Source: Anastrepha obliqua
Taxonomy: Eukaryota > Arthropoda > Insecta > Diptera > Tephritidae
Length of the DNA stretch: 64,000 nt
Reading direction: 5' to 3'
NCBI RefSeq assembly: GCF_027943255.1
Contig: NC_072895.1
Span: 83,330,001-83,394,000, forward strand
A program made the position numbers and the translations under genes. The stretch's first letter is position 1. Each line of letters opens with the position of its first letter. Positions 11,789-15,899 of the stretch are shown here, in pieces. The notes beneath the pieces were generated by a model. It worked only from the letters and a program-made list of their open reading frames with translations, did not search any database and was not told where the DNA came from.

Positions 11789-14435
11789 ATGAAAGCGTAC
11801 GCGAATTTGTGCATTGTCATCGCCATGATTTCGATTATTGCCTCTTTCGGAGCCGAAGGATATGGCATGCGTGGCGGCGCACGCGGTTTGCGGCCGGATG
11901 AGGTGCAGGAGGAGGTACCGCAAGAACTTAACCCAAGAGTACGTAGTTGAAACTTGCATGAAAATGCACATTTGATTCAAAGATTTGATTGGTTTAATTT
12001 TTTATATAATTTTATTATTTACTTTAAAATCTTTCTATTTTGTCAAAGGCACGACGCGCTGCAGTAGACGAGGCACCCGAGGATGTGCCACAGGAGTTCA
12101 GGGAGAGAGTAAGTCTACTATATTTGAATGCCATATGCAGAAGTGTAAACCTTTGAAGCATCTGAAATGATTTTTTTAGTACCGTCGAGCTGTTCCAAAA
12201 GCTGTAGATGAAGCGCCTGAACAGGTACCACAGGAAATTGAGCATAAAGAGAGGGTAATTTTTAGCAGCAATACTGGTAGATAAATGAACTTTTAATTTA
12301 ATGGCTTTTGTTTTAAGTTCCGCCGCTCGCCATCAAAAATTGCTGAGGAAGCACCAGAAGAAGTGCCAAAAGGCTTGCATGGCGCCAGGGTAAGTAACTA
12401 GAAATGTAGTACTAACTGAGAGTATGGATTATTTTTTGAACAGAAACTCCTTCACACTCTTGTTTTTTTTTTTTTATTCGTCGGGACAGACTAGCACATA
12501 CAGCACTCAGACAACATTAAGTCATTTGTACCGCACTCGGTTTCTCTGTTTAGTTTTCTTTAAATCTACGAAGAAATCTGAGTAGATCTTGTGGTGCCAA
12601 GGATTCAAGGTTGCCGCTTCTTAACACATCAAGAGACCTCAAGCCGTATTCGAGCGTAGGTTGAGCCGACGCACAGAAAGTGGTCCGCCGTCTTATCCTC
12701 TTCTCCAAATGCTGGGCAGAGTGTACTGTCTAAAATGCCTACCTTTTCCGTGTGCTTCGCCAATAGAAGGTGGCCGGTCATCAGTCCAACCAGCTGCCTA
12801 CAGTACCTTCTGCTTAATGATAGGAAGATCTGCGACAGTCGGGCGGACATGACAGTGAGTGTGGGCAAAACAACACTCACTTAGTAGGAAAATAGAAAAA
12901 ATATAGAAAAAATAAAAAGGTATTGAGACTCTTCGCGTTGGATAGAAAGCCGATCGTGTCCCACTTGCCTTCGTGTATCGTTATTTGCCAGTAATTGCAT
13001 AAACTACGTTAATCATGCCTATCTATTTAAGGATACTAGCAATGGTAGAATCGAACAGAATATTTCGGAGTTTGCTTTATCCACAAAAGCGTGCGATAAA
13101 ATTACCTTTTTTTTATTGTGCAGGAATGTTGCATACTCAGTTTTCCATTGTCTCGTCATTTTAATTTTAATTTTTCAAAAAATGGCTTTAACTACTTCTG
13201 CTCCTCTTCTTAACTACTCATACTCTTTCGCTCCCGGAGCCAGAGATTTATATCCATTTGGACGACATGATCCAGCGACTTCGTACGCTGGGCTATGTTT
13301 ATGGCGTTGTAAAGCTCAAACCGCTGAAAGATATTAATTCACTAAATTTCTAAGGTTTATAAATTCCTCGAATTGGCTTTAATGATAGTGAAGTGTATTT
13401 CACCAGAGTAGCTTCCACATATCTCTTACCATTGTTTCCGTCTTTTATCAATATTCGAGGTGTTGTATTGAAATGACTTTTTGAGCGTTAGTTGGAGTTC
13501 TAGTCACTAATCAAATATTCTACTCTATAGTAACTTTATAATTCAGCAAGAGTATTTTGAAGTTTCATTTTTATCAGGCATTGTCTCAATGGACTTTGAA
13601 ACTGGGGTAGATCAGTATTATGGGAAATTCCTTATCACACTTGGTATTCGTAGGTGGGATTGTGCTTCGTTAATCGCCGCAACTTCTTTTAATTTTCGCA
13701 AGAAAAGACGGCTACGTCAACTCATTCGGCTACGGCGACCGCCCGACTCCTTAACTGTTTTATTTTGTCTGATATAATGTCGCTTGATGCCTTCCATTTA
13801 ATTTCGTCGCATTTTATGTATATCAGAAGGCAAACGAAGTTATCATTTCTCCATTTATTCTGTAAAAATACGAAAGCTATGAAAATTTGTAAAATCTCAA
13901 AACCCCTTTTTAGACTAATTTCTCGAGTAATAATATGTACCTGTTAGATTAAAAATTTTTAGTTTAGTTCAGCTTCTTCAACGGATAATTACCGATTATT
14001 ATACAAATTCGCCCAGATTTGCTATTACATCCTCCGCACTTGTACTTTATTCTGTGAGGTTTATAATTATTTAAGTAAAAGAAATAAAAGTAAAAATGAA
14101 AATAAAACTTATATCCATAACTATTAGAATTTGAAAGTAAATCCTTTTACTACAAAATTTTACGTTCGCGAAAATAAACATTTATAGTATTAAATAAATA
14201 TTTCTATCAACTGCTTATTAGCTACGTATTTTATTAAGAAGGCAGTTATATGGGTAAACTATTATATATATATAAACATAGTAATCCTGTCACACAAGAA
14301 TGTAACTATTTCGGTGAAATTGTTATCTGCTGGCTATTAAAAAGTTCTCGCTTTTTACAGCACCGTCGCTCACCCCAAATGCCCGTCCCTGACGGCATGC
14401 CTCCAATGCCACCAATGCCACCAATGCCCCAATAA
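11789..14435 (+). CDS. Secreted multi-peptide precursor with furin sites at every exon junction (5 coding exons)
   Basis: Exons: 11789-11938, 12049-12108, 12180-12254, 12318-12389, 14361-14435 (TAA), giving 143 residues. Donors are GTACGT, GTAAGT, GTAATT and GTAAGT; acceptors are CAAAG, TTTAG, TTAAG and TACAG. All introns are phase 0. The start has good fly context (CAACAATG); an in-frame ATG at 11765 precedes it but would bury the signal peptide. Residues 1-24 form a signal peptide (LCIVIAMISIIASFGAEG). Exon 1 then carries RPDEVQEEVPQE; exons 2-4 carry DEAPEDVPQE, DEAPEQVPQE and EEAPEEVPK. Exon 5 is proline/methionine rich (MPPMPPMPPMPQ). Each junction gives R-X-R-R (RARR, RYRR, RFRR, RHRR), the furin consensus, so cleavage would release acidic peptides of about 17-22 residues. 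I do not recognise the gene. The layout recalls insect antimicrobial or seminal peptide precursors, which is inference only. Confidence 0.85.
12462..12862 (-). mobile_element. RNase-H non-LTR element family A, 3' fragment in intron 4
   Basis: A T-run (poly(A) on the minus strand) is followed by the family's 3' end (TCGGGACAGACTAGCA) and, on the minus strand, the C-terminal domain: LSRRYCRQLVGLMTGHLL, HTEKVGILDSTLCPAF, EEDKTADHFLCVGSTYARIR. One zinc-knuckle cysteine is changed (CVGS for CVCP). It is 5'-truncated and lies in antisense orientation inside the long intron of the peptide gene. Confidence 0.85.
13180..13345 (-). mobile_element. Small RTE-like fragment in intron 4
   Basis: The minus strand reads FELYNAINIAQR, then LDHVVQMDINLWL, the ELYDDIDI..RLRWLGHVVRMD region of the RTE-like tails seen at 7790-8415. 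Very short and decayed. Confidence 0.6.
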
Positions 14436-14580
14436 GGATTTTACTAATGAACCAATGCAAGGGTAAGAAAGAATTATTTTTAAAACAAATGCGATTTTGA
14501 CTGAAACATTTCAATGTTAAGGGTAGGGGCCACCTAGCCTTAAATATAATTTAAATTCCCCATTTCATTATTTTGAAAAA

Positions 14581-14586
14581 AATAAA
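14581..14586 (+). promoter_or_regulatory. Polyadenylation signal for the proximal 3' end of the peptide gene
   Basis: AATAAA about 146 bases after the TAA of the Met/Pro-rich last exon. A MITE begins only 9 bases downstream, so the cleavage site would fall in or next to the MITE. Confidence 0.55.
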
Positions 14587-14594
14587 TGCAATTG

Positions 14595-14814
14595 TACGGG
14601 TGGCGCAAAATTAATCATCCAATTCCATTTTTGAGTAACTTTTCTACTAAAGAAAAAAATGACATTGGCTGAGGAAATTTTTATTTTGACCTTTCCACGC
14701 TCCATTACTTGCTGTAGCCATCCAGTTCACAAGTGGCAAATCTGATTGTGGTACAACGCCATTTGGAAAAATTTTAAATCTTCCGATAGAATAACTAATT
14801 TTGTGCCACCTTGT
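14595..14814. mobile_element. MITE copy 2 (CAAGGTGGCGC family)
   Basis: About 215 bp with imperfect terminal inverted repeats: TACGGGTGGCGCAAAATTAA on the left, and on the right the reverse complement of AACAAGGTGGCACAAAATTA. TA dinucleotides flank it and there is no coding capacity. It sits in the 3' region of the peptide gene, between the two candidate last exons. Confidence 0.8.
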
Positions 14815-15842
14815 TTAGTTATGTAGTACTACATACCTCAACTTTGTTCTTCTTGCTGTTTTATATAAACGTAAAAAGAATAGTTGGACTTGCCTCCTAT
14901 GAAATAAAGTATACACAGTGGATATCTCTGGCCGCTTTGAAATTTTAAGGTGCTTTTAAATATTAAGTTGATGCGAAAATGAGAAACTGAGTATGCAGTA
15001 TTGCTATACAGTTAGTTTGTTGGATATATGCATTTTTTTCTGGATAATAGAAAAAAGTTGATTTTTGCCGCACATTTCTATCAACTTCAATACAAATTTT
15101 TATCCTTACCCATATCCCTACAAAGCTTCTATTCTTTCAGACATTGCTGGAAGGCCTTTCCCATCACACAGCTTCAAATTTTGATCCTTTTATTACAAAT
15201 TGCAACATAAAAATGCATATAATTCGGTTGAGGCCAGGTTCGTCTAATACAGAAACAGAAAGTCTAGCATTGGTTTGCTGCAGCTTGAGAGAAACTCTTG
15301 AATGAGAATGCGGAAAAAGCCATCATCTTATCTTGTTTTTAAATTGAATTTAATATTTACCTAGAAACAAAGAAAAAAAACTACACTGATTTAATTACAA
15401 AAGTAAAAGGAACTGTTTCCAAAGGTGAAATTTTCACGTTAAACAGCTGACGGCCGCTGGCTTTTGGCGATTGCTTCGGCTTATATTTACAACACCGTAG
15501 ACTCGCTGGAACAGACAGGCAAATTTTTAATATTTATTAGCTTGACAAAATAAAACTTTTTCAAAAAATTAAAAATCGAATGCTTGATAGGATAGCTTCA
15601 CGTTGAGCACCTAAAAATTTCAAAGAGCAAACAAAAAAAGATAAAGAGAGAGATAAAAGAAAAAAAATCACAAGCCTTTTTCTAGGTAAATAACCAGCTT
15701 GGTTTTTGGAGAAACATATTTTCATTAAACAAAATTATAAAATCAAATAAGAAACAAAAAAAGTTCTCAATAAGTCTCTGTGATTTGTAGTTTGGAATAT
15801 ACCGATGAAAAACTAAACGCTAATAAATAACTTTGATTTCAG
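14815..15842. other. Intronic stretch before the distal last exon
   Basis: No further exon module (acceptor followed by X-R-R in phase 0) is seen here, and no transposon is recognised. The sequence is AT-rich. Confidence 0.45.
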
Positions 15843-15899
15843 GTCCGTCGCCACGTTGCAGAACATGGACTCCCATTCAACATGATGACACCATTTTGA
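15843..15899 (+). CDS. Alternative last exon of the secreted multi-peptide precursor
   Basis: After the acceptor TTTGATTTCAG, the phase-0 reading is VRRHVAEHGLPFNMMTPF followed by TGA. Joined to exon 4 (ending ...GAR at 12389) it recreates the same furin site, R-V-R-R, as every other junction, giving a 137-residue precursor with a different C-terminal peptide. It replaces the Met/Pro-rich tail of the proximal last exon. A donor-like GGGTAAGA at 14461-14468, just past the proximal stop, could alternatively splice to this exon as 3' UTR. The X-R-R start in the correct phase argues that it is coding. Only cDNA can decide which form is used. Confidence 0.65.
   Translation, partial: VRRHVAEHGLPFNMMTPF

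What the first reader, a model, noticed from the sequence alone, without database searches (positions are those of the whole stretch)
11789..15899. Exon-modular secreted peptide precursor: each exon junction encodes a furin site
Seen directly: after a signal peptide, all coding introns are phase 0, and every exon ends in Arg while the next begins X-Arg-Arg (A/Y/F/H/V), so each splice creates R-X-R-R. Exons of 60, 75 and 72 bases carry variants of the same core (DEAPEDVPQE, DEAPEQVPQE, EEAPEEVPK), and exon 1 carries DEVQEEVPQE. Known: R-X-(K/R)-R is the furin consensus, and some insect antimicrobial, neuropeptide and seminal precursors release several peptides this way. Inference: exon duplication built a precursor in which gain, loss or skipping of one exon adds or removes exactly one peptide without breaking processing. 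I do not recognise it as a described family.
Basis: partly seen in the sequence, partly recalled or inferred. Interest (0 to 1): 0.88.

Follow-up and report, generated by a model that had tools for sequence, protein, structure and literature searches.

The report
Exon-modular fly peptide precursor gene
A fruit-fly gene of unknown function appears to make one secreted protein whose predicted cutting sites are each assembled where two exons are joined, so that an exon can be added, lost or skipped as one complete small peptide.

Summary
Six coding exons (11789-15899, +) are phase 0; E2-E6 begin X-R-R and E1-E4 end in Arg, so every splice builds R-X-R-R. A scan for such internal exons finds three in the window, both strands: E2, E3, E4; 200 shuffles average 0.075. 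All 16 exon combinations tested stay in frame and keep one site per junction. E1-E5 match predicted proteins of Anastrepha ludens (LOC128866652 isoform X1, 98%) and Rhagoletis zephyria (LOC108370027, 71% in the alignment). New here: two Musca autumnalis proteins share the layout with 5 and 7 internal modules instead of 3, and differ by two modules plus small indels; their homology to the tephritid proteins is likely, not proven. E5 and E6 look like alternative ends; E5 may be a former internal module cut short by a stop. Best reading: a furin-processed multipeptide precursor releasing acidic peptides. Its role (defence, reproduction or other) is unknown; NF-kB-like sites are not enriched upstream. 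One exon per peptide is known from honeybee apidaecin: a new variant of a known kind.

The parts
11570..11645 (+). probable non-coding first exon (start approximate; TATA match at 11548), followed by intron 11646-11759
   Evidence: TATA match (not unusual: 2 in the 500-bp tile, reached by 48 of 127 tiles); donor cat|gtaagt and acceptor ctaagcag|caat read by eye; 11548-11628 is similar to P0003, an unnamed contig (tblastn). Inferred.
11789..11938 (+). E1: signal peptide and first core DEVQEEVPQE, ends NPR
   Evidence: hydrophobic run peaks at Kyte-Doolittle 3.26 over 11 residues; matched by P0001, P0002, P0003
12049..12108 (+). E2: ARRAAVDEAPEDVPQEFRER
   Evidence: conserved in P0001 and P0002
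12180..12254 (+). E3: YRRAVPKAVDEAPEQVPQEIEHKER
   Evidence: conserved in P0001 and P0002
12318..12389 (+). E4: FRRSPSKIAEEAPEEVPKGLHGAR
   Evidence: conserved in P0001 and P0002
14361..14435 (+). E5: terminal exon, HRRSPQMPVPDGMPPMPPMPPMPQ and stop
   Evidence: last 24 residues identical in A. ludens isoform X1. tblastn did not report it, so it rests on direct translation and alignment. AATAAA at 14581, one of five AATAAA in 14361-16100.
14436..14462 (+). possible decayed 3' part of E5; reads GFY**TNAR in frame, then GTAAGA
   Evidence: E5 to 14462 is 102 nt, phase 0, ends in Arg before GTAAGA; R. zephyria protein continues RFHDDINPR then VRE, which a GTAAGAGAR donor could encode (its DNA was not seen). 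Inferred.
15843..15899 (+). E6: alternative terminal exon, VRRHVAEHGLPFNMMTPF and stop
   Evidence: AATAAA at 16019. No relative holding it was seen; least certain exon.

Best explanation
A single gene of an Anastrepha-like fruit fly encodes a secreted precursor made of exon modules. Shown in sequence: each internal exon supplies P3-P2-P1 (X-R-R) of the cleavage site before its peptide and P4 (R) of the site after it; phase-0 introns lie exactly between P4 and P3; the sites are kept in the relatives found. Inferred: one ancestral exon with this layout was duplicated several times, so every copy inherited half a site at each end, and selection for processing preserved it. A furin-type convertase cuts after R-X-R-R in the secretory pathway, a carboxypeptidase trims Arg-Arg, and acidic peptides of 18, 23 and 22 residues plus an N-terminal and one of two C-terminal peptides are released. 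Module number changes by whole modules between flies. The choice of E5 or E6 would set the last peptide and also the C-terminal residue (H or V) of the one before. Likeliest use: a haemolymph host-defence peptide cocktail (about 0.4), then seminal or reproductive (about 0.25). The confidence below is for the structure and processing, not for the use.
For: Exon map and junctions. Only three such internal exons in the window against 0.075 per shuffle. 16 of 16 exon combinations keep the frame, a single stop and one site per junction. Relatives at 98% and 71% in the alignment (63% by BLASTP for the second), each with all four sites. Cores of E1-E4: pS (0.66-1.24) above pN (0.11-0.25) in 6 of 6 pairs, over 11 codons. 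Musca autumnalis: 5 and 7 internal modules of 20-28 residues, all R|X-[KR]-R; the longer protein carries 43 extra residues, two 20-residue modules plus SIR, placed between whole modules. Tephritid and Musca profiles match at hhalign probability 96 over 72 columns; whole-precursor scores were reached by 0 of 1000 shuffles that hold X-R-R and final R fixed, in 4 of 4 comparisons. Precedents: Buletin, an anionic (-1.9), proline-rich, 22-residue furin product with a defence role (PMC9233930, passages), and apidaecin, one exon per peptide (PMC1847501, passages).
Against: No transcript, proteomic or expression data were available. NF-kB-like sites in 11070-11570 are not enriched (2 Relish matches, tile mean 2.43; 1 Dif/Dorsal, tile mean 1.61; 0 strict kB, tile mean 0.08), which speaks weakly against immune induction. 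The Musca match alone was not significant in the database search (E = 0.46). In one search the best whole-precursor shuffles came close (maxima 142, 142, 133, 140 against 148, 152, 146, 145); the last-module score was reached by 11 to 41 of 5000 shuffles, and the internal modules of the window protein against P0005 by 6 of 500 (0 of 500 in the other three pairs). The profiles rest on 2 or 3 sequences. P0004 and P0005 also differ by small indels of 3-4 residues within modules, so change is not only by whole modules. The cores for pN and pS were picked by protein similarity, so low pN is partly by construction. E6 has no relative. AATAAA occurs five times in 14361-16100, so it is weak support for two ends.
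Confidence: 0.8

Rival explanations
1. The acidic modules are spacers or pro-segments, not the product. The effector is the C-terminal proline- and methionine-rich peptide of E5 (or the E6 peptide); the modules only aid folding, charge balance or dosage.
For: The cores are short, acidic and repetitive, recalling the EAEP spacers of ant hymenoptaecin precursors (PMC3415428, passages). The E5 tail is strongly conserved between Anastrepha and Rhagoletis and recognisable in Musca.
Against: Each module is flanked by full cleavage sites and the cores show protein-level constraint. Module number rises to 7 in Musca without extra copies of the tail. The E5 tail is itself acidic, charge -1.5.
Confidence: 0.2
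2. It is a seminal-fluid or other reproductive precursor: peptides made in male accessory glands, cleaved, and transferred at mating.
For: A secreted, multi-site precursor of narrow known distribution fits such genes; five proteins in all were found in three database searches, which reach only relatives sharing exact words and of similar length.
Against: No expression evidence either way. The papers on fruit-fly accessory glands were seen only as listings.
Confidence: 0.25
3. It is a neuropeptide or hormone precursor with several related peptides.
For: Multi-copy layout; beetle periviscerokinin genes have several coding exons sharing one intron phase (PMC6585902, passages).
Against: In the window no module has Gly just before its site, so no amidation is expected; among the relatives one Rhagoletis module ends NGR. 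The best conserved parts are an acidic core and the E5 tail. Sites are R-X-R-R, once R-A-K-R in Musca, rather than plain K-R.
Confidence: 0.1
4. The split-site layout is a frozen accident: one ancestral exon was duplicated, and intron position was never selected for as such; exons are never skipped. This may be true together with the best explanation.
For: Duplication alone would give identical junctions. No skipping isoform was seen; P0001 and P0002 hold E1-E5 in full.
Against: Sites stay intact in the tephritid relatives and in Musca, which suggests selection at least on cleavage. The two possible ends suggest some splice choice.
Confidence: 0.45

Closest known systems
Honeybee apidaecin multipeptide gene
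   Same: [quoted passage not shown] exon number differs between haplotypes (PMC1847501, passages). Repeats flanked by X-A or X-P dipeptides and basic processing sites (PMC3415428, passages).
   Different: Here modules are acidic, the site is R-X-R-R split between exons, and no Pfam family is matched above cut-off. The intron position in apidaecin relative to its processing site was not checked.
Drosophila Baramicin A
   Same: Furin-separated tandem peptides in one precursor, likened to a protein operon (PMC8423362 and PMC9246212, passages).
   Different: Different sequence motifs; the words exon and intron do not occur in the two main texts, so no exon modularity is described there.
Drosocin (with Buletin) and tandem drosocin of subgenus Drosophila
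   Same: RVRR-type furin site and Buletin, a 22-residue anionic proline-rich defence peptide (PMC9233930, passages); tandem drosocin repeats with furin-like sites in some species (PMC5078906, passages).
   Different: The ERPPY and PRPT motifs of tandem drosocin are not in the window protein; an exon-by-exon layout is not described in the passages seen.
Nasonin-6 of Nasonia
   Same: One exon per repeated domain, by exon duplication (PMC2853521, passages).
   Different: Phase 1 introns and no protease processing signals, per those passages.
Beetle periviscerokinin (Capa) genes
   Same: Several coding exons sharing one intron phase, allowing alternative splicing (PMC6585902, passages).
   Different: Phase 1, neuropeptides; a split R-X-R-R junction is not described in the passages seen.

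Membership tests
Exon-modular furin-processed multipeptide precursor (the kind) | Signal peptide at the N-terminus | tested here: met
   Hydrophobic run after MKAYAN, Kyte-Doolittle peak 3.26 over 11 residues; 3.34, 3.25 and 2.82 in P0002, P0003 and P0004; no dedicated predictor was run
Exon-modular furin-processed multipeptide precursor (the kind) | Repeated modules each on its own exon, same phase | tested here: met
   E2-E4, phase 0; exon boundaries are read from genomic sequence, not from a transcript
Exon-modular furin-processed multipeptide precursor (the kind) | Convertase consensus between modules | tested here: met
   R-X-R-R at every junction in the window; R-X-[KR]-R between modules of P0001, P0002, P0004, P0005
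Exon-modular furin-processed multipeptide precursor (the kind) | Cleaved peptides exist in the animal | not testable with these tools
   no peptidomic data
Apidaecin | Match to a curated family model | tested here: not met
   Pfam gives only Spt5_N below cut-off for the window forms and nothing above cut-off for P0002-P0005; that Pfam holds an apidaecin model is recalled
Apidaecin | One exon per peptide | tested here: met
   apidaecin statement from PMC1847501 (passages)
Apidaecin | Proline-rich cationic mature peptide | tested here: not met
   predicted peptides have charge -1.1 to -4.2 at pH 7; proline is 11-14% except 48% in the E5 peptide; that apidaecins are cationic is recalled
Drosocin | ERPPY and PRPT motifs | tested here: not met
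   absent by eye from the translations; motifs from PMC5078906 (passages)
Baramicin | IM10-like motif VXRPXRTV | tested here: not met
   absent by eye from the translations; motif from PMC8423362 (passages). IM24 and IM22 domains were not compared.
Insect neuropeptide precursor | Gly before basic sites for amidation | tested here: not met
   no window module has it; one P0002 module ends NGR; not all neuropeptides are amidated (recalled)
Immune-induced peptide genes of flies | Induction by infection through NF-kB sites | tested here: inconclusive
   no enrichment of kB-like motifs in 500 bp upstream; expression not testable

The most novel reading that the evidence does not exclude
The gene is a splice-configurable peptide cassette: placing the intron between P4 and P3 of the convertase site makes each exon self-sufficient, so flies tune the peptide mixture by skipping or duplicating exons, with E5 and E6 toggling the terminal peptide. 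It is an old fly family present before tephritids and muscids parted, with module number changing by whole exons.
Probability: 0.25. Interest if true: 0.8.

Novelty: new variant of a known kind. Interest (0 to 1): 0.6.

Why it matters
If right, it is a clean case in which exon boundary and protease site share one coordinate, so that gene-level modularity maps one to one on peptide-level modularity. It allows a direct test of whether intron position is kept for the sake of precursor processing, and it points to a secreted peptide family in fruit flies, and perhaps face flies, for which no paper was found.

Tried and rejected
Chance open frames or a pseudogene: rejected by the shuffles and by the relatives.

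Extra hidden modules in the 1.97-kb intron or between E5 and E6: a loose + strand scan of 11700-16200 found only E2, E3 and E4. tblastn with P0001-P0005 and the E6 form against the window gave no match outside 11548-15896 with E below 0.6; that search also failed to report E5, so it is not sensitive to P/M-rich exons.

Known family: Pfam for the window forms and P0002-P0005, and NCBIfam for P0001, P0002, P0004, P0005, gave nothing above the curated scores; weak hits (Spt5_N, AgrD, quorum_AgrD, Fung_rhodopsin, VasX_N, DUF7550) are taken as composition noise. PDB sequences: best E 0.27, to designed or unrelated proteins. Rfam found nothing at gathering scores in the window.

NF-kB promoter sites: not enriched. 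WGATAR sites: 3 in the 500 bp, a number reached by 12 of 127 tiles; not pursued. The bacterial promoter and terminator scan has no bearing on a fly gene.

E6 support is modest: the window holds 15 YAG|X-R-R sites on both strands, and the tract before E6 fell below the pyrimidine cut used there.

Paralogues in the fly's own genome: not learned; the genome search did not complete.

Literature: no paper names either LOC; of five core strings searched, one occurs in one paper, on SIRT1. sought precursors with sites at exon junctions: one search listed 5 papers, seen as a listing only and none titled on such a gene; one search listed none. Searches were seen as listings, except for the ten papers then opened for passages. 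The library lacks most subscription papers.
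Full report
What is there. Translation of the six stretches gives E1 11789-11938, E2 12049-12108, E3 12180-12254, E4 12318-12389, E5 14361-14435 and E6 15843-15899, all on the + strand, phase 0, with AG before E2-E6 and GT after E1-E4. E1-E4 plus E5 encode 143 residues; E1-E4 plus E6 encode 137. Each junction reads R|X-R-R. Both last exons end in stop codons, and an AATAAA lies 146 bases beyond the first and 120 beyond the second, so they are read as alternative ends; as AATAAA occurs five times in 14361-16100, this is weak support. 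A TATA match at 11548 and a non-coding exon ending at 11645 seem to precede the coding part (inferred).

More than chance. Exons of the form acceptor|X-R-R ... R|donor number 3 in the whole window on both strands, and they are E2, E3 and E4. In 200 dinucleotide shuffles the mean is 0.075 and the maximum 2. The pattern was written after seeing the exons. A looser + strand scan of the gene region returns the same three. The four cores differ at saturated synonymous sites (pS 0.66-1.24) but less in protein (pN 0.11-0.25), in 6 of 6 pairs, over 11 codons only, and the cores were chosen by protein similarity. In 16 of 16 combinations of the internal exons with either end, frame, single stop and one site per junction are kept.

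Relatives. Three database searches returned five proteins in all; only the 7981 candidates sharing most words were scored. P0001 is Anastrepha ludens LOC128866652 isoform X1, 98% identical, with all of E1-E5; the window therefore probably comes from an Anastrepha-like fly. P0002 is Rhagoletis zephyria LOC108370027, 71% in the alignment and 63% by BLASTP, with all four sites. P0003, from an unnamed 1667-base contig, is an E1 with upstream DNA read through. P0004 and P0005 are Musca autumnalis proteins with the same layout. P0004 was reached by profile at E = 0.46 only. Support for homology: hhalign probability 96 over 72 columns between tephritid and Musca profiles of 3 and 2 sequences; whole-precursor scores reached by 0 of 1000 shuffles that keep X-R-R and final R fixed, in 4 of 4 comparisons, with shuffle maxima not far below (133-142 against 145-152). 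Weaker results: last modules reached by 11 to 41 of 5000 shuffles; internal modules by 0 of 500 in three pairs and 6 of 500 in window against P0005. I hold the homology as likely, not proven.

Modules as units. Splitting each protein at R|X-[KR]-R gives internal modules of 20-28 residues: 3 in the window protein, in P0001 and in P0002, 5 in P0005 and 7 in P0004. P0004 and P0005 differ by many substitutions, so they are not splice forms of one gene; by a block of 43 residues, which is two 20-residue modules plus SIR; and by smaller gaps of 3-4 residues within modules. Gain or loss by whole modules is thus seen between sequences; that it went through exon duplication in Musca is inferred, as only protein was available.

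E5 and E6. Reading on in frame past the E5 stop gives GFY**TNAR followed by GTAAGA, so that E5 to 14462 would again be a phase-0 exon (102 nt) ending in Arg. The Rhagoletis protein at this place reads RFHDDINPR then VRE, which a GTAAGAGAR donor could encode; its DNA was not seen. I infer that E5 was an internal module, still open to its end in Rhagoletis, and that a stop codon made it a terminal one in Anastrepha. E6 has no relative in hand and is the least certain part.

How it most likely works. The precursor enters the secretory pathway, a furin-type convertase cuts after each R-X-R-R and a carboxypeptidase trims Arg-Arg (trimming is recalled from drosocin; the passages show the RVRR site, not the trimming). 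Products would be acidic peptides of 18, 23 and 22 residues with charges of -4.2, -3.1 and -1.4, an N-terminal peptide of about 27 (signal cleavage assumed after AEG), and a C-terminal 21- or 15-mer. The split of the site, P4 on one exon and P3-P1 on the next, is best explained by duplication of one ancestral exon and later selection on cleavage. Whether the animal uses exon skipping is open.

What it is for. Host defence is the favoured guess because furin-cut precursors are called widespread among animal antimicrobial peptide genes (PMC9246212, passages), though tandem-repeat layouts are called rare (PMC8423362, passages), and because an anionic proline-rich example, Buletin, has a defence role (PMC9233930, passages). 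Against it, kB-like sites are not enriched upstream. A reproductive role is the main rival; a neuropeptide role is less likely for want of amidation sites in the window.

Novelty. One exon per peptide is described for apidaecin (PMC1847501, passages) and exon duplication for nasonin-6, without processing signals (PMC2853521, passages). I found no paper on this gene or on a precursor with the convertase site split at every exon junction; the library lacks most subscription papers. I rate it a new variant of a known kind, interest 0.6.

Noticed in passing
12550-12729 (-), in intron 4: Frame that resembles, by eye, a frame at 18242-18502 (+) (both end SLAPQDL.RFL...RFKEN); probably tails of a non-LTR retrotransposon. 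Pfam gave no match for 12550-12729.
   Followed up: partly
9516-10082 (-): hAT transposase C-terminal dimerisation region (Pfam) upstream of the gene.
   Followed up: partly
50451-51479 (+), 28483-29070 (-), 61317-61754 (-): Three mariner-type transposase frames (Pfam Transposase_1); the first is open over 343 codons.
   Followed up: partly
54490-55119 (+), 40785-41216 (-): Reverse transcriptase and endonuclease frames, probably of non-LTR elements.
   Followed up: partly
22610-23512: Long array of a short repeated unit, open in three frames on the + strand as FYSIL repeats.
   Followed up: no
P0004 and P0005 (Musca autumnalis): Two closely related proteins, one labelled isoform X2, that differ by many substitutions and by two modules; they look like paralogues or alleles.
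   Followed up: partly
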